NCBI RefSeq assembly: GCF_009729855.1
Contig: NZ_WODA01000022.1
Location: 124,001-188,000, forward strand
Source of the DNA: Agromyces luteolus
GTDB lineage: Bacteria; Actinomycetota; Actinomycetes; Actinomycetales; Microbacteriaceae
Direction: 5' to 3'
DNA: 64,000 nt
The translations under genes and the position numbers were made by a program. Of the stretch, positions 18,548-30,961 are shown one piece after another (the stretch's first letter is position 1; every line of letters starts with the position of its first letter). Below the pieces are notes generated by a model that saw nothing but the letters and a program-made list of their open reading frames with translations, had not been told where the DNA came from and made no database searches.

Positions 18548-18620
18548 GGCTCTGTAGCTCAGTTGGTAGAGCGTTCGACTGAAAATCGAAAGGTCACCGG
18601 ATCGATGCCGGTCGGAGCCA
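18548..18620 (+). tRNA. tRNA-Phe (anticodon GAA), 3' end supplied by the integrated element
   Basis: 73-base cloverleaf. The acceptor stem GGCTCTG pairs with CGGAGCC (one G-T), anticodon GAA sits in ACTGAAAATC, the T arm is CCGGATCGATGCCGG, and the discriminator is A18620. It is the integration target: bases from the anticodon loop onward are repeated exactly at 30917-30961. The gene stays intact because the element brings an identical 3' part. Confidence 0.97.
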
Positions 18621-18622
18621 CA
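18578..18622. repeat. attL core, 45-bp direct repeat in tRNA-Phe
   Basis: Starts at ACTGAAAATCG in the anticodon loop and ends two bases past the tRNA. It is identical to 30917-30961. The identity stops on the left at G18577 versus C30916. It marks the left end of the mobile element. Confidence 0.93.
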
Positions 18623-18666: not shown

Positions 18667-19887
18667 CTACCGTGAGGGTCTTCGCTGAGCTTGGGCCATT
18701 CTTGGGCCATTAACTCTCGCCGGCTTCTTCCTCTGGGCCATTTCGGCAACCTCGCCATCGGCTGCGCCGAGCATCTGGTCGAGCGCCGCGCCGGCACGGA
18801 GTGCGACCCCCTCGCGCGCCCGGGAGTATCGCTCGGTGACCTGCAAGCTCGAGTGGCCGAGGGTCGCCTGCACGTCGGGTGCGCTCGCGCCCGCGTCGAA
18901 GAGGATCGTCGCGAACGTGTGGCGGAGGTCGTGCACGCGCAGGTCGGGCCGGCCGATCGCCTTGCGCAGTTCCTCCCAGTCGACGCCGCGGCGTGCGTTG
19001 TGGTTCGTGAGTCGTCCGCCGTCTGGTCCGGAGAACAGCAGGTCGCTTGGCTGCTTACCGCGTGCGGCTTGCTCGGCGTACGGGCGAAGCGCGTCGATGA
19101 GCGGAACCTCACGGGACTTGTGGCTCTTCGGCGACTGCTCGATCAGCTCGCCCCGCTGACCAGGACTCAGCGAGCGGCTGACACGAATGATGCCGCGCTC
19201 GAAGTCGACGTCACCGACACGAAGCGCGGTCGCTTCACCGGCCCGCATCCCCGTGTAGACGAGCGCGGCGACGTAGCTGCGGTAGGCACCCTCGGGCACG
19301 AGCTCGAGCAGCGTGCGCACCTGGTCGAGCGTGAGCGCCCGCGAGATCGGCGAGACGGATTCGCGCATGCTCGGCCGCTTGACCTCTCGCGCCGGGTTGT
19401 AGTCGATGAACCGGGAGCGGCGCGCGCCATCGAGCAGCCGTGAGAGGACTGCGAGCGCGTCGTTCTTCGCGGATGCCCCGCCCGACCACGCGACCATCGC
19501 CGACTCGATCATCGGTGAGGTGATGTCCTCGAGCCGATGCCGGCCCAGGCTCGGCTTCACCCGCAGACGCCAGGCGACGCCGTAGCCTCGCGCGGTGGCG
19601 GGTCGGACGGACGACTCGATCGCCGGCCAGTACTTCTCGTGCCACTGCTCGAGCGTCATCGATCCGTTCGGGTTGCGGCCGGCGACCATCTTCGCGAGCT
19701 CGCGCTTGGCCTCGGCGAGGGTGAGGAACATGCGGGTGCGCTCGGCCGCTCCCCCATCGACGCTCGGGCCGACGACGCGGATCTGGTACCGCTGCCGATC
19801 GGCGCGCCAGCGGATGCCCTCGGGCAGCGGCCGCCCCGTGCGCGGATCGATGCGCGTCGGGGAGTCGCGGCCCGGCCGTCCGGCCAT
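18667..19887 (-). CDS. int: Tyrosine-type site-specific integrase
   Basis: 406 residues. N-terminal AP2-like arm-binding part (RQRYQIRV, about 25-75), core-binding SAM-like domain (about 77-165) and catalytic domain (about 185-360). Catalytic residues: R215 in YTGMRAGE, candidate K257, H319-x-x-R322 in HDLRHTFAT, H345 in LGHSS, and nucleophile Y354 in ERYSRA. All are present, so it should be active. The ATG at 19887 shares one base with the excisionase stop (TGATG), so the pair is likely cotranscribed and coupled. It points toward attL. Confidence 0.95.
   Translation of the reverse strand: MAGRPGRDSPTRIDPRTGRPLPEGIRWRADRQRYQIRVVGPSVDGGAAERTRMFLTLAEAKRELAKMVAGRNPNGSMTLEQWHEKYWPAIESSVRPATARGYGVAWRLRVKPSLGRHRLEDITSPMIESAMVAWSGGASAKNDALAVLSRLLDGARRSRFIDYNPAREVKRPSMRESVSPISRALTLDQVRTLLELVPEGAYRSYVAALVYTGMRAGEATALRVGDVDFERGIIRVSRSLSPGQRGELIEQSPKSHKSREVPLIDALRPYAEQAARGKQPSDLLFSGPDGGRLTNHNARRGVDWEELRKAIGRPDLRVHDLRHTFATILFDAGASAPDVQATLGHSSLQVTERYSRAREGVALRAGAALDQMLGAADGEVAEMAQRKKPARVNGPRMAQAQRRPSR
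18690..18711. repeat. Arm-type integrase-binding repeats, left end
   Basis: Two adjacent direct copies of CTTGGGCCATT (18690-18700 and 18701-18711), 68 bases inside the attL core and within the 3' end of the integrase gene. The same word recurs near attR at 30792. Paired direct repeats flanking the core are typical arm sites of tyrosine recombinases; binding is inferred. Confidence 0.6.
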
Positions 19888-20084
19888 CAGGTCTCTGTGC
19901 CGCCCCGGGCGAGCAGTTCGTCGATGGTGTCGGCGCTCCAGAGCAGGTGCTTGCCCATGTGGGCGTCGGGCTCGGGGATGAGGCCGTCGCGTCTGAGCTT
20001 GTCGAAGCTCGAGACCGGGATGCGACACCGCTCGGCCGCCTCGGCGCGGTTCAGGTACTCGACCCTCACGGCGATGCCGACCAT
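19887..20084 (-). CDS. xis: Excisionase-like MerR/HTH DNA-binding protein
   Basis: 65 residues. The winged-helix pattern EYLNRAEAAERCRIPVSSFD, then LRRDGLIPEPD and a WSADTIDELLA tail, is typical of AlpA/MerR-type excisionases of actinobacterial elements. Coupled to the integrase by a TGATG overlap. It likely steers excision and may bind the repeats in the divergent promoter next to it. It could start a few codons later at the internal GTG. Confidence 0.75.
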   Translation of the reverse strand: MVGIAVRVEYLNRAEAAERCRIPVSSFDKLRRDGLIPEPDAHMGKHLLWSADTIDELLARGGTET

Positions 20085-20136
20085 GACGAACCCCTTCCGA
20101 CCAGCCGCTCGCGGGTTGCATCGCTACGCGGCTATT

Positions 20137-20207: not shown

Positions 20208-20897
20208 ATGGCGAAGCCCGTTCCCCGACCCGGTGACCAGTCCTTCGACGGCTTGCTGGTCCCGGAGGACCTTCCCGAGGGCTGGTACCTACCGAACCGG
20301 TTCCCCGGCGAGCGCGACGACGACGCGAGCGCGCAGATCGACGTGGTGCTCGGGTACGACGACCAGGGCGCGCCGGCCGACTCCGACCAGAACGAAACCA
20401 CCGACGGCCGCTGGCGCTACCTCGAGCACGAGGCCACGCACACCCGCGTGATGATTCGCCTGCAACGGCAGCTCTTCGCCGTGCCCGAAGAGGTCCGCAT
20501 CACCGGCGTGATCTACCTCCCCTGGCGCCCGGGCGAACCCATCACAAGCCAGCTCCTCCGCGAGCTGCCTACGGCTCGCATCGAGGCCGCGATCAACAAG
20601 CGCCTGTTCGCGATGAAGCGAACTGAGACGATCGCGGGAGGCAAGATCGTCCTACCGTCAGGCCGCAAGGTCAGCGAGCGCGACCTCCTCAAGCCACTCG
20701 GCGACCCGAAGAAGGTGCCCGACTTCTACGAGCTCGTCGCGCTGCAGCATGGCCGCCTGACGCAGCAGGGCGATTCGAACCCGAGCGCGACGATGGCCCA
20801 ACTCAGCAGCGTCGCACTATCGACCGCACAAGGCTGGATCACGAAGGCCCGCGAACGCGGCCTGCTGCCGCCTGGAAGGCGTGGCCGCGCGGGTTGA
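20208..20897 (+). CDS. Hypothetical element protein with C-terminal helix-turn-helix
   Basis: 229 residues, soluble and acidic in the first half. The N-terminal 65 residues are rich in Asp, Pro and Gly. A beta-rich middle (THTRVMIRLQRQLF to GVIYLPWRPG) follows. The last 40 residues, ATMAQLSSVALSTAQGWITK, look like a helix-turn-helix of the kind in replication or regulatory proteins. It could be the element's regulator that binds the repeats just upstream. I do not recognise the family. A short upstream region with two repeat copies precedes the ATG. Confidence 0.6.
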   Translation: MAKPVPRPGDQSFDGLLVPEDLPEGWYLPNRFPGERDDDASAQIDVVLGYDDQGAPADSDQNETTDGRWRYLEHEATHTRVMIRLQRQLFAVPEEVRITGVIYLPWRPGEPITSQLLRELPTARIEAAINKRLFAMKRTETIAGGKIVLPSGRKVSERDLLKPLGDPKKVPDFYELVALQHGRLTQQGDSNPSATMAQLSSVALSTAQGWITKARERGLLPPGRRGRAG

Positions 20898-21135
20898 GTA
20901 CACAGAGGCGTGTCAGACCATGGCTCGTACGGCGTGGCGGAAAGAGCACGCCACGCGCGGACTCAAGACATCTGATGCTGTCCGAACCACGATTCGGGTG
21001 AACCGGGAAGCCCGGGTGAGCGATACGATCCCTGGCCACGGGAACGTCTGGTCCGAGTGACCCGATTTGGAGCACCCGACTCCGTCAGTAGGTATTCCGC
21101 CCGCCAGCCGATTCAGAACGGATCAACTTCATTCC

Positions 21136-23604
21136 ATGGGACGACGACAGTCACGAGCGAACAATGGGCGAGCCCGGGAAGCGCGCTCGCTTGAAACGCA
21201 GATCGACCGACACCTTCGCGCAGCCGAGCGTTTCGCTATTTTGCAGGGTGACTCCGACGCCGAAACCTTGGTGAACATTGAAACAGCGATCAAGAGAGGT
21301 GTCGCTGAGTTGCTCACCCTGATCGACGGTCATTCCGCGTTCGACGTCATCGCCAACTCATTCATGCAGAACCTTGTCGGCGACCCGGAATCCTATGAGG
21401 AAACAACACACGAAGGCGCACCGATCGTAACGGAGCTAGTCGCCCTCGTGGCCATGAGTTCGGATCACGCACAGCGACCTGCCATCGAACAGGGTTGGCC
21501 TCCTATGGACGAGGTCCAGACTCTGGCACTACAGATCCTGGAACTGGGGCGTTTTCGCCAGGTACTGGGAAAAGTGAATGCCGACGACACGCAGGAGCTT
21601 TCTAGCCAACTCGCCATGCGCGAGTTCACGATTCGCAACGCTGCGTATCCGCACATGATGGAGGAGTTTCTTGACGACCTCACCTCGCGGCTCGATGAAG
21701 CGGAACGCGTCGTCGAGGTGCTCGGATTTCGACCGTCAGATGGGTTTCGGATTGTCCAGCAGATCACTCAGAACCGGCACGACCGGCTGAGTGCCCGCAT
21801 GCATCGTGTCGGCGAGATTCAGGATCAAGCCGAAGCGCTCGCCCGTGTGCTCCCTGAGTCGCAAGATCGGGCTGTCACCGCATCTGACGATGATCAGGTC
21901 TACGAGAATTGGTACGCAATATGGGGAACATTTTGGCGAGACATTGAAGAACTCGGACTTCTGGATGTCGATGAACTTGCTGCCCAAACGGAGATCTCAC
22001 CCACTGTCGTATCTCGAATCATCGCCGCACTGACGATTGATCTTTCGAAACAGAACTCGATGGATCTTGTCGAAAGCTTCCTGGGCGGGCGTAATCCTTT
22101 CCGAGGATCTCCCATACTTCAGGAGTCAGGATCCGGCCGCTTGATGGCGGTGCACGAAGTGGACATCCTCCCTGCGCTCAGGGTCGCCATGGAACGAGTA
22201 CTCATTGGTTCACCCGCGGAGGCCGAGTACACGGAGGTTCGTGCCAAGCTGGTTGAAACCACCGCGTTGGGCTTCCTCGTAGCGATGCTTCCCGGAGCAA
22301 GGATTTTCCCATCGTTCGAGCACTTCGCGCCGACCGATCCCGCCATCAAGGAGGGACCTGAGGCTTACACGCAGCTAGTCGAATGTGACGGACTCTTGCT
22401 CCTCGACGATGTCGCGATCGTTCTCGAGGCAAAAGCCGGAGCGCTGTCTCAGAAGGCCCGCGAAGGCAATCGCGCACGTCTTGGGAGTGACCTTCGGCGC
22501 CTGGTATCGACGGCGTCCCAGCAGGCTGCGCGACTTCGGGATCTCATTCTCACCGACCGACAGGTTGTCCTGCGCGATCGCTCGGTCATGGATCTGAGTC
22601 ACGTCAAGGAGGTGTACTCCATCGTCGTGATACTTGAAGACCTCAATCAGTTGGCAACAGTAACCGACGATCTGGTGCGCACTGGGGTGCTTCGCGGCCC
22701 CCTACTTCCGTGGGTTGTGAATCTGTTTGACCTCCGAATAGTGAGTGAAGTCATTGATCGACCAGCGGAGTTTCTCATCTACTTGCGCCGCAGGACCTTG
22801 CCCGAGCTAACTCGAACTGTGCTCGCGCAAGATGAGCTCGACTATTTCATGTACTTCTTATCCGAAGGCTTGTATATCGAGGTGGACCCGGACGTGGAAC
22901 AGCAAGAATGGAAGCATTCCCGTGTGACGACAGCGAAGCGCCGGAAATTTCGAAATCAATCCGTCACCATCCTCGCGAGCCATACAGTCTCACTCGATTC
23001 CTGGTATTTCTACCAACAGGGCGACCGCCATACACCCGCGCCTAAGCCGCACCTGAACGTCCGCGATGAACTCAAGTCGTTCGTAGATCTCATCGCCGAC
23101 GCTCGGCCCCCGGGCTGGCTGCCGACCGCAGCAGCGCTTCTCAGCGGCGACGCAAGTACTCGACGCGGGGTTCTTGAAATGCCTGCGATCCTCGGCGAAA
23201 TGTCGCACCGCGACGGTTTGCAGCACACCTCGACGATGGTGTTGGGGGATCGGAGACAGAACCGAATGCTGATTGTGTGGCTCGTGGTCCCCGCTCGAGT
23301 ATCTGCTCAAATGCAGGAGGAGCTGATTTCAAGTCACGAACAATACCTCGCGGCGAAGAAGCATCAGTTGGATCTTGAACGCGCCGCCATGATGATCTTC
23401 GACAGCGACGGACAATACCTCGGACTGAGATTCGACAATCGAGACGTTGGGCCGGACGCTGATCTCGACGAAGCCATTGCCTCCCGCGGTCTGCGCGTGG
23501 AGAGCGCACTCACGCCGGCTCAACTCACGATGAGGCTTCGCGCCGAGCGGTCGAAAGCGTCACCATCTCCCTCGGGGAACAAGAACCGGAAGGAGCCGCG
23601 ATAG
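21136..23604 (+). CDS. Large protein with PD-(D/E)XK-like nuclease signature, possible defence gene
   Basis: 822 residues from the ATG at 21136; a TTG at 21067 would add 23. Charged helical N-terminal half. A nuclease-like block lies in the middle: helix with E374 (KLVETTALGFLV), then VECDGLLLL with D418, then AIVLEAKAG with E431-x-K433. This is the spacing of PD-(D/E)XK cores. The C-terminal 350 residues have no motif I recognise. Codon use is much less GC-biased than in neighbours, so it is foreign. No RBS of good quality is seen. Possible restriction or abortive-infection nuclease; function is an inference. Confidence 0.65.
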   Translation: MGRRQSRANNGRAREARSLETQIDRHLRAAERFAILQGDSDAETLVNIETAIKRGVAELLTLIDGHSAFDVIANSFMQNLVGDPESYEETTHEGAPIVTELVALVAMSSDHAQRPAIEQGWPPMDEVQTLALQILELGRFRQVLGKVNADDTQELSSQLAMREFTIRNAAYPHMMEEFLDDLTSRLDEAERVVEVLGFRPSDGFRIVQQITQNRHDRLSARMHRVGEIQDQAEALARVLPESQDRAVTASDDDQVYENWYAIWGTFWRDIEELGLLDVDELAAQTEISPTVVSRIIAALTIDLSKQNSMDLVESFLGGRNPFRGSPILQESGSGRLMAVHEVDILPALRVAMERVLIGSPAEAEYTEVRAKLVETTALGFLVAMLPGARIFPSFEHFAPTDPAIKEGPEAYTQLVECDGLLLLDDVAIVLEAKAGALSQKAREGNRARLGSDLRRLVSTASQQAARLRDLILTDRQVVLRDRSVMDLSHVKEVYSIVVILEDLNQLATVTDDLVRTGVLRGPLLPWVVNLFDLRIVSEVIDRPAEFLIYLRRRTLPELTRTVLAQDELDYFMYFLSEGLYIEVDPDVEQQEWKHSRVTTAKRRKFRNQSVTILASHTVSLDSWYFYQQGDRHTPAPKPHLNVRDELKSFVDLIADARPPGWLPTAAALLSGDASTRRGVLEMPAILGEMSHRDGLQHTSTMVLGDRRQNRMLIVWLVVPARVSAQMQEELISSHEQYLAAKKHQLDLERAAMMIFDSDGQYLGLRFDNRDVGPDADLDEAIASRGLRVESALTPAQLTMRLRAERSKASPSPSGNKNRKEPR

Positions 23605-23708: not shown

Positions 23709-26396
23709 ATGAAGGGCGGCGTGATCCTCTACCGGGGTTCCGGGGCAGACGCGGGTCGCTACCTCGAGTCCGATCGATCGCGGGCTGACGAGTACTACCT
23801 CGAGGGCGGAACATCCCTCGCCGAGTTCTCGGTCGTCGACGACGACGGCGAGTTGATCGGCGAAGGCGCACTGACTCCCGGCGAGTACGGCCAGTGGGTC
23901 GACTGGGTCAATCCGCTCACCGGTGAGACGATGGGCAAGCCCCGCCTGCCCGGCGACGGACGCCACGGGTCGCCGCGGTTCGCGGAGATGGTCGTGAACG
24001 CGCCCAAGTCGCTGTCGATCGCGGCCGCGCTTCATCCTGAGGTATCCCACGCGCTCGACGTCGCGCAGCGCGATGCGGTCGCCGAGATCCGCGCCTGGCT
24101 CGGCCAGCACTCAGTCACCCGCGTCGGACCGCGCGGCGCGCAACGTGTCGTGCCCATCGAGCAGCTCGAGACCGTCGCGGTCTCGCACAAGACGTCGCGG
24201 GCCGGAGACCCGCACCGTCATATCCACCTCCAGGTCGGCACGAGGGTGTGGGCCGCCGACGCGTGGCGCGGCCTCGACACCGCGGCGCTCTTCCGGCAGC
24301 AGGGCGCGATCCGCTCGCTCGGCACGGCCGTCATCGCCGGGCATCCGCAGCTCGCGGCCGCGCTCGACGCGCACGGCCTCACCCTCGACCCGGTCACCGG
24401 CGAGGTCGCCGAGTTACAGCCGTTCAACGCGGTGATGAGCAAGCGGGCCGAACAGGTCGCGCGCAACCTCGCGCGGTTCGAGAAGGAGTGGCGCAGCGCG
24501 CATCCCGACCAGGAGCCCGGCCCGGCGGCGATGACGCGGCTCACGGCGATGGCGTGGGACCACGAGCGACCGCACAAGAAGCCGACGAAGCTCGGATGCG
24601 AGGCGGCATGGCGGTCCGAACTCGAGGATGCCGGCTACCGACCCGACCTCGAGCGTGCGCCGGCCCACCCTCCGATCGCGCTCGAGGAAGTGCGGGTTCA
24701 GGACGTCGCGTCCCGCGCCCTCGACCGTTGCGCCGCGACCGCGTCGACGTGGACGGTGCACGACATCCAGGACCAGGTCACGCGCATCATCACCGAGGCC
24801 GGCGTGCGCGCGGAACCGCGACAATTGCGCGAACGCATCACGCTCGCGACTCGGTTGGCGGCCGACGATTGCCTGTCGGTCCTGCCGCCTGATAGCCCGC
24901 ATCCCGAGCACGTCGCGCACTTGACGAGCGGGCACGTCATCGCCTGCGAGACCCGGCTGCGCGATCTGCTCGCCGCGCGCGCAACGTACACCGGACAGCG
25001 CACGCCAGACCTGCGCCGCATCGCACGCCGGCTCGGTCTCGACCCGGCCCAGGCCCGAGCGGCTGCGGCGATCGCGTCCGTCGATCCGCTGGTCATCGTC
25101 GAAGGCGCCGCCGGCGCAGGCAAGACAACGATGCTGGCCGCTGCCATCGCGGCCGGCGCCGAACACGGTCGCGCAACACGAGTGGTCACCCCGACGAAGA
25201 AGGCCGCGGATGTCGCACACAAGGAACTCGGGATCGCCGCCGACAGCGTCGCGAAGCTCCTCCACGAGCACGGATGGCGCTGGAATCGCGACGGCGTCTG
25301 GACGCGGCTTGCCGTCGGTGAGCGCGATCCACAGACGGATGCCGCGTACACCGGCCCCGCGGCATCCGCTCGGCTCTCCCGTGGTGAGCGCATCGTAGTC
25401 GACGAAGCGGGCATGCTCGACCAGGAGACGGCGCTCGCACTCCTCACCGTCGCCGGCGAGTACGGCGCGACGCTCGCGCTCGTCGGCGATCGAGCGCAGC
25501 TCGCGGCCGTCGGCCGCGGCGGTGTGCTCGACATCGCCGCGGAACTCCTCACCCGGGTGCACAGCATGACCACCGTGCACCGCTTCGCCGATCCCGGGTA
25601 CGCCGCGCTCACCGTGCGGATGCGGCACGGAGACGACCCGACAGCCGTGTTCGACGACTTGCACGCGCGCGGACTCGTCGTGATGCACGAGAGCCCCGAT
25701 GCGATGCGTGCTGCGCTCGCACTCGAGCGTCGCGACGGCGACGCGATCACCGTCGCGACGAACGATGAGGCACGCGAGCTGAATGAGCGGTTCCGCGACG
25801 AGCGGGTACGCGTCGGCGAGGTCGACGACCATCGGACGGCGCTCGGGAGCGACGGGCTGAGCATAGGGCGCGGCGATCCGATCCAGACACGCCGGAACGA
25901 CTCGGCACTGCGCGTGGCGAACCGACAGACCTGGGTAGTTCAGGGCGTCGACGACCATGGGGCTGTGTGGGTGAAGGAAGCCCTCGCCGGCGCCCGACAA
26001 CGTACGGTGCGACTCACGGCCGAGTACGTCGCGGAGCACACCCATCTCACCTATGCGTCAACCGCCTATGGGATGCAGGGCGCGACGGCGCCCGCGTCGC
26101 ACACGGTGCTGACCGATTCGATGGGCGCGGCAGACCTCTACGTGGGGATGACGCGCGGACGGAACGCCAACCGCCTCCACGTCGTCGCGGCCGACCTGAG
26201 CGAGGCGCGCGAGCAGTTCGTGCTCGCGATGGAGAAGGACCGCGCCGATCGCGGAGTCGACCGCGCTGCGGACGCCGCTCGAAACTCTGTGCGCGGTCTC
26301 GTCCCCGCCGCGCATCAACCACAGAACGCTGCCCCTGCTCCATTTGAGCTTGACACGGCTCGGCGCGGCAGGCGACAGCCAGACCTCCGCCTCTGA
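23709..26396 (+). CDS. MobF-type relaxase with TraA/RecD-like helicase
   Basis: 895 residues. N-terminal relaxase: tyrosines in ILYRG and DEYYLEGG near the start, and the HUH metal site in SHKTSRAGDPHRHIH (H160, H169, H171, H173). C-terminal superfamily 1 helicase: Walker A GAAGAGKT at 466-473, Walker B VVDEAGML at 563-570, and the late STAYGMQGATA and VGMTRGRN motifs. It nicks oriT and unwinds the strand for conjugal transfer, using transfer machinery supplied elsewhere. ATG preceded by GGAGGG. Shorter than plasmid TraA, which often exceeds 1000 residues. Confidence 0.9.
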   Translation: MKGGVILYRGSGADAGRYLESDRSRADEYYLEGGTSLAEFSVVDDDGELIGEGALTPGEYGQWVDWVNPLTGETMGKPRLPGDGRHGSPRFAEMVVNAPKSLSIAAALHPEVSHALDVAQRDAVAEIRAWLGQHSVTRVGPRGAQRVVPIEQLETVAVSHKTSRAGDPHRHIHLQVGTRVWAADAWRGLDTAALFRQQGAIRSLGTAVIAGHPQLAAALDAHGLTLDPVTGEVAELQPFNAVMSKRAEQVARNLARFEKEWRSAHPDQEPGPAAMTRLTAMAWDHERPHKKPTKLGCEAAWRSELEDAGYRPDLERAPAHPPIALEEVRVQDVASRALDRCAATASTWTVHDIQDQVTRIITEAGVRAEPRQLRERITLATRLAADDCLSVLPPDSPHPEHVAHLTSGHVIACETRLRDLLAARATYTGQRTPDLRRIARRLGLDPAQARAAAAIASVDPLVIVEGAAGAGKTTMLAAAIAAGAEHGRATRVVTPTKKAADVAHKELGIAADSVAKLLHEHGWRWNRDGVWTRLAVGERDPQTDAAYTGPAASARLSRGERIVVDEAGMLDQETALALLTVAGEYGATLALVGDRAQLAAVGRGGVLDIAAELLTRVHSMTTVHRFADPGYAALTVRMRHGDDPTAVFDDLHARGLVVMHESPDAMRAALALERRDGDAITVATNDEARELNERFRDERVRVGEVDDHRTALGSDGLSIGRGDPIQTRRNDSALRVANRQTWVVQGVDDHGAVWVKEALAGARQRTVRLTAEYVAEHTHLTYASTAYGMQGATAPASHTVLTDSMGAADLYVGMTRGRNANRLHVVAADLSEAREQFVLAMEKDRADRGVDRAADAARNSVRGLVPAAHQPQNAAPAPFELDTARRGRRQPDLRL

Positions 26397-26605
26397 ACAC
26401 CCGGTTCGCATCTGTCCGAGCGATACAAACCGAGGAGAAGCGGATCAACGGCCAGATCCGAGTCCCGTTCGGTATCGCGTGCGCATCGCGGAGTCCCATT
26501 CTGGAAGAGTGTCAAGCAATTGCGCTCCCACCGACGCGTGTATCGCTACTCGTCGCGTGGTACCGCGATTCGATGGGCCATTGCAGTTGACGGAGAGGAA
26601 GAACG

Positions 26606-29600
26606 ATGCCGCGGAATCGTCGGCGAGGTAGTGACGGGGAGGCGGCGAGACGGGCGGCGCAACGGATGCAAACCGCCACGACCGCAAGCTCTGAAGCCAC
26701 CCCGGCGGACCTATTCGGCCGGCTCCGGCAGGGCGCACGCAATGTCGCCGGGGTGAGCTACCAGATCGGCTTGTCCGCGGCACTGTTGGTCCGCTCAGGA
26801 ATGGGCGGCTGGCCCGACATTACCGCGGTACGGCCAGAAGGCTTTGAAGACATCGACTGTCGTCTGGAGGACGGCGGCTGGCTGTTCGTTCAATCAAAAG
26901 AACGCTCCCCTGGGAACGCTCTTGGCGCATCTGGTGTCGCCGAAGCCATAAGGCACGCGCTCGAGCTGCGTTCAGTGACGGCAGACGATGGACCGCGAAG
27001 GGTTGCCGTGGTGACGAACGAGCGGTTCGCGTCGAACGTGCCCGTGACCGGCTGGAGCTCCACTCTGTCCGGCCAACTCGGACTCGACAATCTTCGCGCG
27101 GCGCTGATCGCCCAAGGGATGGACGCGGCGGAGACGGAACACGCTTTGTCGCTGACTTCGACTGTGATCGTTCCCGACCCACTCCAGCCCGGCATAGTGC
27201 GCGGCGTGCTGGATGGCTACGGGGTTGCAGACATCGTGGCCCGCGCTGTGCATGCGCACCTCGTCCACGAACTCGCACGGATGGCTGGCGAGCAGCGCTC
27301 ACGTGAGCTGCACGACGCGTTCGTCTTCGAGCGGACGCGCATCGATCGACTTGTGGAGGATGTGCAGCGCGCCACAGACCTTACGCGGCTCTCGCGCGCC
27401 GTCGATGCCGGCGTTTGTGAGTTCGCCGATTTTGCGCACGGGACTCCCGACGACTTGACCACGTTCTTCAGTGGCGTCGCGGTCCTGCCCACGCACATCG
27501 CTTCAGGGCTCGATGTCCTTCGCGTAAGCGAAACCGAGCGGGCGCTCGAGGCCCTGAGCCGTTCTCGTCAAGCGCTGATCGTGGGCCCTAGCGGTACCGG
27601 CAAGTCCGCACTACTTTGGCGGACCGCGTCGATGATCGCAGACGGCTCCCGTGTCATTCGAGTCACACGCGTATCCTCCGATTCCGATGTCGCGCTCCTC
27701 GTGGATCACGTAGCCGCCCTCGCCCCGGACGCCTCTCGTCCGGTGATTGTATGCATCGACGACCTGGGTCGAGCGCGGACCTCTGCGTGGCCAGCTGCCC
27801 GCGACGAGCTTCTCGCTATGACCGGCGTGTCTGTGATCGGTGGCTGCCGTCAAGAGGACTTGACCCCGGAGATTGGGCGGCGCGCAGCGCTCGTGGACTC
27901 GCGGCTGGATGGTGCGTCCGCGCACGCAGTAATTCAGGCAATGCAGACCTCTGGAATCAGTCTCGCGGTCGAGCCGGAGGAAGCAATCGACCGTGGCAAT
28001 GGGCTCATGATGGAGATGATCGCCTTTGCGACAACAGGCCGTCACCTAAACGAGGTGCTCTCGGATCAAGTGGCGATGCTCTCGACCCGGGATGTGCTCG
28101 CAGTCGAGGCCCTCCGCTACATCGCGACGCTGCACACGCTCGGCCACGCCCTGCCTGCCGAGCATCTCGGCCGCATGTGCACTCAGGACGGCGACTTGTC
28201 GCACTCATTGCGGCTGCTTCAGGACGAGCACCTCATTGCAATCGAGGACGCGACTGCGTGGCGAGCTCTGCATGACCTCCGTGCCGAGGTGCTGGTCGAG
28301 GTGCTCCACGCATCCCCGCCGCCCACCCTCGGTGCCACCTATGCCCGCGCCATCGCTGGCGTCCAGCCACGCCTGCGCCCGGAACTCGTCCGCAGGGCGG
28401 CCACACGCCTCACGAGACGGTCGTCAAGTGCTCTCGGCCTCAGCCGTGAGCTTGGTGCCCTCGCCGATATGATCCGCGACCAAGTCCGCCGCGAGATCGA
28501 TCACCCGAGTGAGGCGACGGCGGGCCGGGTCGCCGAGTGGGTTCAGGTCGCGGAGAGACTCGATGCACTGAGCTACGTGCACGCCGCGCTCCGGGTCGTG
28601 AGCAACTCAGTCCCTGACACCGCCGACCCCACCGACGTCCTGCTGTTGGCATACTCCCATCAGGCATCCGACGTGCTCGCCGAGCTGGACCTTCTACGGG
28701 ACATCCGCGACCTCGCGGCCCGACTGCCCCAATGGTCGCCGAGCTCGGTTGAGACCGTCCTCATCGCGCTCGACCCCGGAGGGGTCGACACCGCCTTCGT
28801 CACGGCAGACCTCGAATCGGCGATCGCGCTCGCGGAGGCGATCGAGGGCCGGATACCGGTATCCGCTGCCACCGTCGCCCGCGTCCTCGAATCGCACCCG
28901 GTCGAGCCTGGAAGCCTGAGAAGTGTTGGCCTTCGTGCTCAGCTCGTGGCAGCTCTGTTCTCCGCCAACGATCCAGCACCCGAGGAGGTCGACGGCCTGT
29001 TCGGTGCGGTCGCGAGCCGCGCAACCCTCGCCGTCGCCGCAGACCCCTCCGGATACGAAGCAGTCGTCACAACAATTGCGGCCACGGCCCTGCCCGAATC
29101 CCGAAGTGCGCTCGTCAGGCCGCCCCGCTCGGAAATCGCGACCGTAGCCACCGCGAAGGCGTTTGCGCGCGCAGATCCGAACTACGAAAGCGATAGCTAC
29201 CCGGATCAGCCCGGGACCAACGCAGCGTCGGTCAACGCTCAGGCCGTGCGGTTCGTTCGGCGGCTGTTTGACATGTGCCCCGAACTCGACCTCGTAACGG
29301 TTGATGTTGTGCAAGCCCACGGTGAAACCGACATGATGGGCGTGCCCTCCGACGGGCACAAGTCCATCCGTGCCGGCGTGGTCCCGAGGGCGGTCGAACA
29401 GCGTCGGAACATTGCAGTTCAGGCCGCTGCGATGTCGACACGGAACAACGAGCGCTGGTCTGATCGATGCCGAGAGCAAGCCGCACTCGCGAACGATCTC
29501 GCCACGCTCCTCAATGAACTTCCGCGCCGGTTCGCACCCAACGACCATGCCGCTCGGCGAGGGGATTGGTCACACAGGGTGCGCCAAGTTGCCGCCCGCG

Positions 29601-30736
29601 CAGCCAGGATGCCAGGAATTCCGGCGCCGCGCCCATTCCTCGACGAGGTAGCGACTCTTCTCGGCTCGAACGCGGCCGACCTTGAGCAGCGCGTCAGAGA
29701 GTCCGATAAGGCTAGGAAGTTCTACGACGCTGTCACCGGGTCGCTGTTGCAGGTGGTCCAGTCGGGGTTCGATCAGCATGCTGTCCACGGCGCCGGCCTC
29801 CGGTTGGCGGCGGCCCTCAAACTGTTCGACGAGGCCGAGACAGGGCCCCAGCTCCCGGTGTACGCGGCAATCGGTCCTACACTGCCGAGCGCCCTCCGCG
29901 ATTCAGTCCTAGTCGCCTCACGGATGCTGACCTGTTTCGAGCGCCTCCCTGCCGGCGCCCTCCGCGTCAGCAGCGTCGGCGACCGCGCCTTGACGAACGC
30001 ACTTGACCAGCTGGCAATCGGACAGGCGGCCGCGACCGCGGATGCCGTCATGGCGCAGCTCGAGGCGGCGGGAGTGTCGGATGTGACCGTGGCGACCTAT
30101 GAGGCCGCCGAGCCTGTGCCCGCATGGAATCACCTGGGGGTCAGCGTTGCCGTGGTTCTGGACGACTGGGCCGCGACGGAACGAGCGCTTCGCGAGTGGG
30201 ACGTGCACGCCCGAACCGAAGCTGGCTTTGACAGCGTGGTCGTCGCGTCGGCCCGTGACGGCGGACTGGCGATCCCAATCGGCCTGGTGCTGTTCGGATC
30301 TGGATCACGAGGAACCCCCGCAACCGACGAGTACCTTCAGCTAGCTCGAGTCGTCCATGCACTGGACGAGGTCCCCCACGTCTACCGCGCAAGGATGGGC
30401 ACTTACCTCGACCAACTCATCTCGCTCTCGCAGGCCAAGAATCTGCGCCTTCACCGGCCCGGGCACTGGCCGGCGATCCCCGATCCGCCTCCGCTTCCCG
30501 CGCCGCTGACCGTCTCGGAAGACGACCCCGCAGCATGGAGTGCGGCTGTAGAGCGGGCGGCCGCGCTCGCAACCGAGGTCGGCGCCGACGATACCCGTGG
30601 TGCTCAACTTGCCGTCGACCTCGCCCGGCTCGACATGTACCAGACAGGTTCTGCCCACGCCCAGCTCGCGAGCCTCGTGCTCGAGGTGGGGTTCCTGACC
30701 CTGGAAGCCGATGTCGATATTGCGCGAGCGCACTAG
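26606..30736 (+). CDS. Cap4-like nuclease / STAND-type P-loop NTPase fusion, candidate antiphage sensor
   Basis: 1376 residues. Residues 49-100 show a Cap4/DUF4297-like nuclease pattern: GVSYQIGLSAALLV, then EDIDC (D84) and FVQSKER (Q96-x-K98). Residues 320-420 form the NTPase: Walker A GPSGTGKS at 327-334, Walker B VIVCIDDLG at 380-388, and a sensor-like VIGGCRQEDL. The remaining 900 residues are helical with no motif I recognise, as expected of a repeat-type sensor. Nuclease-STAND-sensor order matches Avs-type antiphage proteins. GGAGAGG lies 7 bases before the ATG. It is the last gene before attR, a usual cargo site. Role inferred. Confidence 0.75.
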   Translation: MPRNRRRGSDGEAARRAAQRMQTATTASSEATPADLFGRLRQGARNVAGVSYQIGLSAALLVRSGMGGWPDITAVRPEGFEDIDCRLEDGGWLFVQSKERSPGNALGASGVAEAIRHALELRSVTADDGPRRVAVVTNERFASNVPVTGWSSTLSGQLGLDNLRAALIAQGMDAAETEHALSLTSTVIVPDPLQPGIVRGVLDGYGVADIVARAVHAHLVHELARMAGEQRSRELHDAFVFERTRIDRLVEDVQRATDLTRLSRAVDAGVCEFADFAHGTPDDLTTFFSGVAVLPTHIASGLDVLRVSETERALEALSRSRQALIVGPSGTGKSALLWRTASMIADGSRVIRVTRVSSDSDVALLVDHVAALAPDASRPVIVCIDDLGRARTSAWPAARDELLAMTGVSVIGGCRQEDLTPEIGRRAALVDSRLDGASAHAVIQAMQTSGISLAVEPEEAIDRGNGLMMEMIAFATTGRHLNEVLSDQVAMLSTRDVLAVEALRYIATLHTLGHALPAEHLGRMCTQDGDLSHSLRLLQDEHLIAIEDATAWRALHDLRAEVLVEVLHASPPPTLGATYARAIAGVQPRLRPELVRRAATRLTRRSSSALGLSRELGALADMIRDQVRREIDHPSEATAGRVAEWVQVAERLDALSYVHAALRVVSNSVPDTADPTDVLLLAYSHQASDVLAELDLLRDIRDLAARLPQWSPSSVETVLIALDPGGVDTAFVTADLESAIALAEAIEGRIPVSAATVARVLESHPVEPGSLRSVGLRAQLVAALFSANDPAPEEVDGLFGAVASRATLAVAADPSGYEAVVTTIAATALPESRSALVRPPRSEIATVATAKAFARADPNYESDSYPDQPGTNAASVNAQAVRFVRRLFDMCPELDLVTVDVVQAHGETDMMGVPSDGHKSIRAGVVPRAVEQRRNIAVQAAAMSTRNNERWSDRCREQAALANDLATLLNELPRRFAPNDHAARRGDWSHRVRQVAARAARMPGIPAPRPFLDEVATLLGSNAADLEQRVRESDKARKFYDAVTGSLLQVVQSGFDQHAVHGAGLRLAAALKLFDEAETGPQLPVYAAIGPTLPSALRDSVLVASRMLTCFERLPAGALRVSSVGDRALTNALDQLAIGQAAATADAVMAQLEAAGVSDVTVATYEAAEPVPAWNHLGVSVAVVLDDWAATERALREWDVHARTEAGFDSVVVASARDGGLAIPIGLVLFGSGSRGTPATDEYLQLARVVHALDEVPHVYRARMGTYLDQLISLSQAKNLRLHRPGHWPAIPDPPPLPAPLTVSEDDPAAWSAAVERAAALATEVGADDTRGAQLAVDLARLDMYQTGSAHAQLASLVLEVGFLTLEADVDIARAH

Positions 30737-30916: not shown

Positions 30917-30961
30917 ACTGAAAATCGAAAGGTCACCGGATCGATGCCGGTCGGAGCCACA
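30917..30961. repeat. attR core, 45-bp direct repeat (displaced tRNA-Phe 3' end)
   Basis: Exact copy of 18578-18622. It is the original 3' end of the chromosomal tRNA-Phe, now separated from its 5' half. It marks the right end of the element. Confidence 0.93.

What the first reader, a model, noticed from the sequence alone, without database searches (positions are those of the whole stretch)
26606..30736. 1376-residue Cap4-like nuclease + STAND-type NTPase with unrecognised sensor domain
The order nuclease (EDIDC...FVQSKER), P-loop NTPase (GPSGTGKS, VIVCIDDLG) and a 900-residue helical C-terminus matches Avs-like antiphage sensors, but I recognise no known sensor domain in the C-terminus. It is the last cargo of a mobile element. 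This is the best candidate for an undescribed defence system.
Basis: partly seen in the sequence, partly recalled or inferred. Interest (0 to 1): 0.85.

Follow-up and report, generated by a model that had tools for sequence, protein, structure and literature searches.

The report
Mobile Cap4-nuclease STAND immune sensor
A bacterial mobile element carries a single large gene that looks like an immune alarm protein: a DNA-cutting domain, an ATP-driven switch and a long detector region of unknown kind, most likely used to destroy DNA when a virus infects the cell.

Summary
Window 26606-30736 (+) encodes an intact 1376-aa protein: Cap4/DUF4297-type nuclease (about 38-257), STAND switch (258-640) and a C-terminal region (641-1376) with no recognised family. 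It is the last gene of a 12.4-kb integrative mobilizable element in tRNA-Phe, bounded by a 45-bp exact repeat. In 14 of 20 relatives' loci scanned, a neighbour matches a defence profile (Avs2, Gabija, Qat, Lit, restriction). An 83%-identical copy in the same genus lies away from any such element, so the gene moves alone; dN/dS is 0.21 (0.12 in the switch, 0.32-0.34 in two C-terminal parts). The N-terminal 605 residues match Avs3 best (Foldseek 2.3e-12); the switch aligns best with SAMD9 (Z 21). No Avs profile matches. Verdict: an Avs-like family that I could not find described; defence likely but untested, trigger unknown. At least 8 of 31 relatives have a second large NTPase-like gene in tandem, six of them HNH-NACHT: a possible bacterial receptor pair.

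The parts
18578..18622 (+). attL: 45-bp repeat formed by the 3' end of tRNA-Phe (18548-18621)
18667..20121 (-). integrase of the element (484 aa), tyrosine-recombinase type
   Evidence: ORF; integrases 80-96% identical beside tRNA-Phe in G693, G699, G711 (L069, L094, L080); the name is from sequence and context, not from a family scan
20208..20897 (+). 229-aa element gene, function unknown
   Evidence: no Pfam match at E<=1 and none in PADLOC or NCBIfam; matches in 9 of 17 related loci compared, several of which are cut short
21067..23604 (+). 845-aa second cargo gene with an EAK motif at residue 454; perhaps nuclease-like
   Evidence: no family match; plasmid relatives include proteins annotated SEC-C or NERD; motif
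23709..26396 (+). MobF/TrwC relaxase-helicase (895 aa)
   Evidence: TrwC 7.8e-40, NCBIfam MobF 8.8e-36; strong matches in 20 of 60 genus genomes, own genome included
26525..26605 (+). about 80 bp upstream shared with the lone copy in G716 (probable promoter and ribosome-binding site; inference)
   Evidence: DNA match begins at 26525
26606..30736 (+). Cap4-STAND protein, 1376 aa (the finding)
26717..27376 (+). Cap4/DUF4297-type nuclease domain, residues about 38-257 (E78, D82, Q96, K98 invariant)
27377..28525 (+). STAND switch, residues 258-640: Walker A K333, Walker B D385, R415, winged-helix H556
28526..30733 (+). C-terminal candidate sensor, residues 641-1376, mostly helical with two alpha/beta modules
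30917..30961 (+). attR: exact copy of the 45-bp repeat, followed by a near copy of the tRNA terminator

Best explanation
A single-gene, NLR-like anti-phage protein of the same working type as Avs3. Resting state: the STAND switch holds nucleotide and keeps the nuclease apart. On infection the C-terminal region (641-1376) binds a phage product (or a product of infection), the switch exchanges nucleotide and the protein oligomerises, bringing Cap4-type nuclease domains together so that they degrade double-stranded DNA of host and phage, an abortive response. Shown here: the gene, the domain order, the invariant catalytic and switch residues, mobile and defence contexts, selection. Inferred: trigger, oligomerisation, DNA cleavage, protection.
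For: Nuclease: Cap4_nuclease (PF14130) in 19 of 32 members, best 2.3e-8 (not in the window protein itself); profile matches to LmuA 2.1e-6 and AbpA 0.0017, in which E78, D82, Q96 and K98 fall on E, D, Q and K; model aligns with HerA-DUF4297 Z 15.6 (rmsd 3.4, 185 aligned), LmuA Z 14.5 (3.3, 196), Cap4 Z 14.1 (3.8, 175). Switch: nSTAND_NTPase5 in 31 of 32 members, best 8.6e-9; the Avs3-terminase complex is the top Foldseek match, 2.3e-12; SAMD9 Z 21.0 (rmsd 4.2, 332 aligned). Context: 12.4-kb element in tRNA-Phe; 16 of 26 neighbouring genes scanned, from 20 of 31 homologue loci, match PADLOC models, including Avs2 2.7e-291, GajA 7.1e-193, QatA (E printed 0), Lit 4.7e-14, type III REase 1.2e-187, against 1 of 10 large ORFs of the window outside the element. 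Rare: 2 of 60 genus genomes; on 9 of 72,556 plasmid records. Selection against the G716 copy: dN/dS 0.209 overall, switch 0.124, C-terminal parts 0.337 and 0.322. HerA-DUF4297, with this nuclease type, degrades dsDNA and aborts infection (PMC11291478, passages).
Against: No phage test exists. The window protein does not reach Pfam's cut-off for nSTAND_NTPase5 (27.9 bits whole, 29.6 for residues 36-640, cut-off 34) and has no Cap4_nuclease match of its own. No Avs profile matches it. The Foldseek Avs3 match has TM-score 0.25 and rmsd 20.6 over the whole model and Avs3 in VIA has rmsd 16.6: domains match, the overall arrangement is not shown to. 10 of 26 neighbours scanned had no PADLOC match; the neighbours were picked for size or closeness, some matches (RecD-like helicase at L022) are generic, and the control is small and not matched. 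The C-terminal model is of middling confidence (mean pLDDT 77.6).
Confidence: 0.82

Rival explanations
1. It guards the element itself: a nuclease-STAND that destroys DNA when a competing plasmid or integrative element enters (anti-plasmid or exclusion), not phage.
For: Carried by a mobilizable element and, in relatives, by 9 plasmid records of which 6 are typed conjugative; Lamassu, which holds the nuclease relative LmuA, is called anti-plasmid/phage (PMC10586767, abstract start in listing).
Against: A chromosomal copy without the element's genes in 19.9 kb of G716; PADLOC-matching neighbours of relatives are mostly genes known, from recall, as anti-phage.
Confidence: 0.2
2. It senses damage or loss of a host process (guard model) rather than a phage molecule, for example through a host chaperone or DNA ends. 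This overlaps with the best explanation, whose trigger is left open, so the odds do not add up to one.
For: Our searches show no similarity of the C-terminus to Avs sensors (inconclusive); bNACHT25 senses phage through DnaJ (PMC12169576, title and abstract start); AbpAB, with the same nuclease type, responds to phage SSB or host DNA damage (PMC10732053, title).
Against: Two C-terminal parts evolve faster than the switch (dN/dS 0.32-0.34 against 0.12) and there are local variable patches (L032 versus L004: 42-55% at 721-804 inside about 90%), which fits a changing foreign ligand; relaxed constraint would look similar, and the patches in L032 and the fast windows in G716 are not at the same places.
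Confidence: 0.3
3. Not defence: a regulator or DNA-repair factor of the element.
For: STAND proteins include transcription regulators (a maltose-system regulator structure, 8bob, appears); no experiment excludes it.
Against: Nuclease active site invariant in 31 of 31 rows that have it; no copy near the relaxase in 16 related loci of 11-20 kb nor in the same-site element of G693, so related elements do without it; it is found apart from the element in G716.
Confidence: 0.05

Closest known systems
Avs3 (AVAST type 3; 8dgc, bound to phage terminase)
   Same: Same order: Cap4-type nuclease, STAND NTPase, long C-terminus; top Foldseek match of residues 36-640, 2.3e-12. That Avs3 has a cap4 domain is stated in a figure legend of PMC11291478 (passage).
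   Different: No PADLOC Avs model matches; chain of 2,028 residues against 1,376; no match found between our C-terminus and an Avs sensor (inconclusive).
SAMD9 / SAMD9L (animal antiviral STAND-like proteins)
   Same: Switch region 258-639 aligns over 332 residues, Z 21.0. Avs5 is also reported to resemble SAMD9 (PMC12931631, passage), and bacterial SAMD9-family proteins are reported in actinomycetes (PMC5445408, passages).
   Different: SAMD9 has an AlbA-domain tRNase effector and a Walker A in which Gly replaces Lys (PMC13245274, passages); here a Cap4-type nuclease and Lys333 in 32 of 32 rows.
HerA-DUF4297, LmuA (Lamassu), AbpA, Cap4 (CBASS)
   Same: Nuclease domain, Z 13.4-15.6.
   Different: There the nuclease is controlled by a separate ATPase, SMC or helicase protein or by a SAVED domain (partly from recall); here by a STAND switch in the same chain.
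Bacterial NACHT proteins (bNACHT)
   Same: NLR-like logic; a HNH-NACHT gene is the tandem partner in six relatives.
   Different: The window protein's switch matches nSTAND5, not NACHT, and no partner gene follows it before attR.

Membership tests
Avs (AVAST), type 3 in particular | N-terminal Cap4-type nuclease | tested here: met
Avs (AVAST), type 3 in particular | central STAND NTPase with Walker A/B and winged helix | tested here: met
Avs (AVAST) | match to a PADLOC Avs profile | tested here: not met
   E up to 1: only PDC-S68, E 0.014, over 30 residues at the P-loop; the Avs2 neighbour in L006 does match Avs2 models, so such models work. Only the window protein of the family was scanned.
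Avs (AVAST) | C-terminal sensor related to an Avs sensor | tested here: inconclusive
   no match at E<=0.001 for residues 565-1376 (50 of 291 rows shown); VIA rows are generic helical repeats; hhalign to one Avs2 gives nothing for the C-terminus
Avs (AVAST) | activation by terminase, portal or another phage protein | not testable with these tools
   needs binding or phage escape experiments
SAMD9 family | STAND-like switch of SAMD9 fold | tested here: met
   Z 21.0; by sequence, the profile of residues 342-640 finds no SAMD9 chain among its 5 PDB matches
SAMD9 family | AlbA-type effector domain | tested here: not met
   the effector is a Cap4-type nuclease; no AlbA match for the window protein nor among the 25 of 32 families shown
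CBASS Cap4 | SAVED domain after the nuclease | tested here: not met
   no SAVED match in Pfam or PADLOC for the window protein; residues 258-640 are a STAND switch
Lamassu | LmuA nuclease with an SMC-like LmuB partner gene | tested here: not met
   no SMC-like match among the four element genes scanned; the integrase was not scanned
Integrative mobilizable element | integrase, att repeats, relaxase, no own conjugation machinery | tested here: met
   five large genes between the repeats, four of them scanned, none a conjugation channel gene; transfer itself untested

The most novel reading that the evidence does not exclude
The family is a further Avs type whose sensor has a fold not seen in Avs1-5 and recognises a phage product not yet known as a trigger; in part of the family it works as half of a translationally coupled receptor pair with a HNH-NACHT protein, a bacterial counterpart of sensor-helper NLR pairs, while the window's version works alone.
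Probability: 0.35. Interest if true: 0.75.

Novelty: new variant of a known kind. Interest (0 to 1): 0.58.

Why it matters
Avs-like proteins are bacterial counterparts of NLR immune receptors, and each new sensor points to a viral feature worth detecting. The window protein matches no Avs model of the defence library used here (PADLOC 2.0.0); its family spans four phylum-level groups, can move as a single gene, and has a large sensor region without a recognised relative. At least 8 of 31 relatives are followed in tandem by a second large NTPase-like gene, yet L019, 98% identical to L013 over the switch, lacks the HNH-NACHT partner and has Qat genes instead. That makes the question whether bacteria use paired receptors directly testable. 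The carrier belongs to a common element family (relaxase in 20 of 60 genus genomes) that carries other defence genes as well.

Tried and rejected
Known-family labels: NCBIfam gave only P-loop noise; PADLOC gave no usable match; phmmer against the PDB gave one chance match, E 2. C-terminus: Pfam scan of 30 members gave 16 families, each in one member, best E 0.034; PDB profile search none; Foldseek best 0.13, BFVD best 0.16; VIA best Z 9.3 to a helical repeat, which for helical repeats is not informative. Absence of Avs sensors from those lists is not evidence that the folds differ.

SAMD9 by sequence: the profile of residues 342-640 found five weak matches, three of them winged-helix or Z-DNA-binding chains (E 0.32 and worse). 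Partner versus family: the HNH-NACHT partner is not a paralogue (hmmsearch; hhalign of the C-terminus).

One search shows that the first 146 residues of the partner follow it, 100% identical, up to the end of the record, and that the first 6 kb of the record hold no continuation: a cut gene or an artefact of the record, not a partnerless copy. L019 is used instead.

Phage carriage: no match in 50,697 phage records and none of 600 candidate stretches in viral contigs confirmed.

Weak genome hits: 43 of 396 phylum genomes match A1 at E<=0.001, but apart from G000 and G349 the matches are short, mostly around the P-loop, with E of 5.8e-7 or worse; I did not count them as family members. dS between the window gene and L008 is large or saturated, so the G716 pair was used.

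Rows: 32 aligned rows are the window and 31 relatives. L030's nuclease is a separate frame, hence 31 rows for the nuclease. L003 (624 aa, ends by an IS21) and L015 (first of two frames) hold only the N-terminal part, hence 30 rows for the C-terminus. L002 ends early beside IS21 genes. L002-L007 (plasmid records) were left out of the structure alignments. Three genomes with partial relaxase matches (G698, G704, G139) were left out of the 16 element loci.
Full report
OBSERVATION. The open frame 26606-30736 (+) is intact, 1376 aa. Its ATG follows a GGAGAGG sequence that is also present before the copy in G716.

ELEMENT. tRNA-Phe is at 18548-18621. A 45-bp stretch that includes its 3' end (18578-18622) recurs exactly at 30917-30961, followed by a near copy of the terminator. 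The 12.4 kb between hold an integrase (-), a 229-aa gene, an 845-aa gene, a MobF/TrwC relaxase (TrwC 7.8e-40) and the gene in question, last before attR. G+C is 0.655 inside against 0.725 and 0.719 outside. None of the five large genes is a conjugation channel gene (four were scanned), so I call it an integrative mobilizable element.

RELATED ELEMENTS. In G693, of the same genus, both flanks match at about 91-93%, and an element with a related integrase but other genes and no copy of this gene sits at the same tRNA-Phe. The relaxase has matches at E<=1e-100 in 20 of 60 genus genomes, the own genome included. Of the 19 others I took 16: in the 11-20 kb read around each relaxase none has the 1376-aa or the 845-aa gene. 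Two of the 16 (L080, L094) show tRNA-Phe and both att-like ends, 14.5 and 10.1 kb apart; for most others the element ends were not mapped. Of nine large genes near the relaxase that I picked from seven of these loci, four match PADLOC models: Dsr1 1.3e-41 (partial), QatA 3.2e-149, type I restriction 1e-160, Hachiman HamB (E printed 0); five do not. Two of those five match Pfam NACHT weakly, below its cut-off (3.8e-5 and 5.3e-4). The element family thus often carries defence genes; these genes were picked for size, not at random.

FAMILY. tblastn found 9 plasmid records of 72,556, below 60% identity and covering about 40% of the query, residues 35-586, and no phage record of 50,697. Whole-genome searches: 1 of 297 genomes of the order with the protein (the own genome), two convincing matches of 396 in the phylum with profile A1, 2 of 60 in the genus with profile A2. 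The loci L002-L032 are the 31 relatives used below (six from plasmids, 25 from genomes). The tree of residues 36-640 joins the window protein with the Rhodoglobus copy (70% identical; 100/100) in a group of actinobacterial rows with one Chloroflexota row; other groups are proteobacterial, with one Dadabacteria row and three separate actinobacterial rows. Long branches make deep joins unsure.

CONSERVATION. See the observation check for the invariant columns. D84 is not conserved. From recall, R415 and H556 fit the sensor arginine and the winged-helix histidine of Apaf-1-type switches. The mean share of the commonest residue per 50-residue block is 0.47-0.64 across 201-600 and 0.28-0.46 beyond 600.

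STRUCTURE AND FAMILY MATCHES. Pfam: nSTAND_NTPase5 in 31 and Cap4_nuclease in 19 of 32 members. The window protein scores under the 34-bit cut-off for nSTAND_NTPase5 (27.9 whole, 29.6 for residues 36-640) and has no Cap4_nuclease match. PDB profile search: LmuA 2.1e-6 and AbpA 0.0017; the top row, 2.6e-7, is a 115-residue 'phosphate-loop protein'. AlphaFold model of residues 36-640, mean pLDDT 86.1: Foldseek top matches Avs3 2.3e-12 and 3.5e-11, SAMD9 3.1e-10, Avs4 5.1e-8, Avs5 6.3e-8, all with low whole-model TM-scores (0.22-0.42) and rmsd near 20. VIA: SAMD9 Z 21.0, rmsd 4.2, 332 aligned, model 223-604 (protein 258-639); HerA-DUF4297 Z 15.6; LmuA 14.5; NLRC4 14.2; Cap4 14.1; Avs5 13.7; Apaf-1 13.4; Avs3 12.4 at rmsd 16.6. 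Clp/Hsp104 AAA+ rows at Z 12-14 show that the core NTPase part is common; the SAMD9 rows stand well above them.

C-TERMINUS. Residues 565-1376 were modelled with mean pLDDT 77.6: helical repeats, then two alpha/beta modules separated by helices. No Pfam family beyond single weak rows in 30 members, no PDB sequence, no Foldseek match at E<=0.001 in PDB or BFVD. Identity to the window is as low as 9-15% for most relatives, but G800 is kept in 30 of 30 rows, P892 in 29, N935 and L1097 in 28, so I take the C-termini as homologous. They vary locally: L032 against L004 falls to 42-55% at 721-804 within about 90%; L016 against L019 falls to 38-52% at 1231-1349. Against the G716 copy dN/dS is 0.124 in the switch, 0.190 in the nuclease, 0.337 (641-815), 0.197 (816-1060), 0.322 (1061-1376), 0.209 overall. 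The fast windows there (641-720, 801-880, 1281-1360) are not the L032 patch. This fits a constrained engine with a faster-changing detector; relaxed constraint would look similar.

MOBILITY OF THE GENE. In G716 an 83%-identical copy has DNA similarity to the window from 26525 to 30730 only; the element's integrase, 229-aa, 845-aa and relaxase genes and any tRNA were not found in the 19.9 kb examined. The gene therefore occurs, and is kept, without its element neighbours, which argues for a single-gene system in this clade.

NEIGHBOURS. Of 26 neighbouring genes scanned in PADLOC, from 20 of 31 loci, 16 matched: 4 of 6 (E<=0.001), 5 of 10 (E<=1e-5), 7 of 10 (E<=1e-5); they lie in 14 of the 20 loci. 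They include Avs2 (L006), Lit (L026), QatA (L019), type III and type I restriction (L028, L029), GajA (L025), PD-Lambda-4 (L020) and a protein with ThsB and PDC-S60 matches (L018). Control: 1 of 10 large ORFs of this window outside the element, a partial AAA match; the control is small and not matched.

TANDEM PARTNERS. Clustering 334 neighbour ORFs within 8 kb gave one cluster found in more than three loci: a gene of about 1470 aa downstream in L004, L013, L014, L015, L017 and L032. L013's protein matches PADLOC effector models named endonuclease and SAVED_HNH at its N-terminus, and L013 and L004 match NCAB2 (2.1e-30, 3e-29) and, weakly, NACHT. Five aligned copies are 80-86% identical to that of L013; L017's is in two frames, and L015's follows the second frame of a split first gene. 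In L004 its start codon lies inside the end of the first gene (14 bp overlap). The Ruegeria plasmid L005 holds only its first 146 residues, at the end of the record. L022 has another large gene (LmuA-like start 1.9e-6, AAA_16 1.7e-5) overlapping the stop by 4 bp, and L016 one of 1438 aa at the stop with a P-loop seen in its sequence only. So at least 8 of 31 have a second large NTPase-like gene in tandem. The others were not all tested for other kinds of NTPase: L019 and L025 are followed by QatA and GajA, which belong to other named systems. L019 is 98% identical to L013 over the switch and has no HNH-NACHT partner. The window has no partner gene.

MECHANISM AND NOVELTY. The parts support an Avs3-like mechanism (see best explanation). 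HerA-DUF4297 shows by experiment that this nuclease type cuts dsDNA and aborts infection (PMC11291478, passages). I found no description of this family in 10 paper searches over an open-access library, judged from listings and passages; two main Avs papers are not held, so a listing in them or in supplements cannot be excluded. The protein fails the Avs profile test but by its parts works like an Avs: a new variant of a known kind.

Noticed in passing
window 21067-23604 (+): 845-aa second cargo gene of low G+C (0.578), with an EAK motif seen in nuclease folds; relatives on 35 plasmid records, listed names including SEC-C, NERD and SecA. It may be another defence gene.
   Followed up: partly
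L004, L013, L014, L015, L017, L032 directly downstream of the homologue; also L016, L022: Tandem pair of NLR-like genes: Cap4-STAND followed by HNH-NACHT (or another NTPase-like gene), start overlapping or abutting the stop where checked; L019, nearly identical to L013 in the switch, lacks the partner.
   Followed up: partly
L080-L095, and L069:3400-10620: A family of integrative mobilizable elements with shared MobF relaxase and, in part, integrase and 229-aa gene, at tRNA-Phe where the ends were seen, with Dsr1, Qat, type I restriction, Hachiman and NACHT-like genes beside the relaxase: a source of further defence candidates.
   Followed up: partly
L002:13378-15415 and L003:9875-12301: Two plasmid copies of the gene end early next to IS21 istA/istB genes; the L015 and L030 copies are split into two frames.
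   Followed up: no
L082:522-4805, L089:15060-19412: 1427- and 1450-aa NACHT-like proteins upstream of the relaxase without a PADLOC match at E<=1e-5.
   Followed up: no
L026:13844-14764, L027:8508-9428: Lit-like peptidase (PADLOC Lit 4.7e-14 for L026; L027 by similarity) starting within a few bases of the homologue's stop in two proteobacteria.
   Followed up: partly
L005:11797-12234 and L099: The partner gene breaks off at the end of the circular Ruegeria plasmid record without a continuation at its start: a truncated gene or a record artefact.
   Followed up: no
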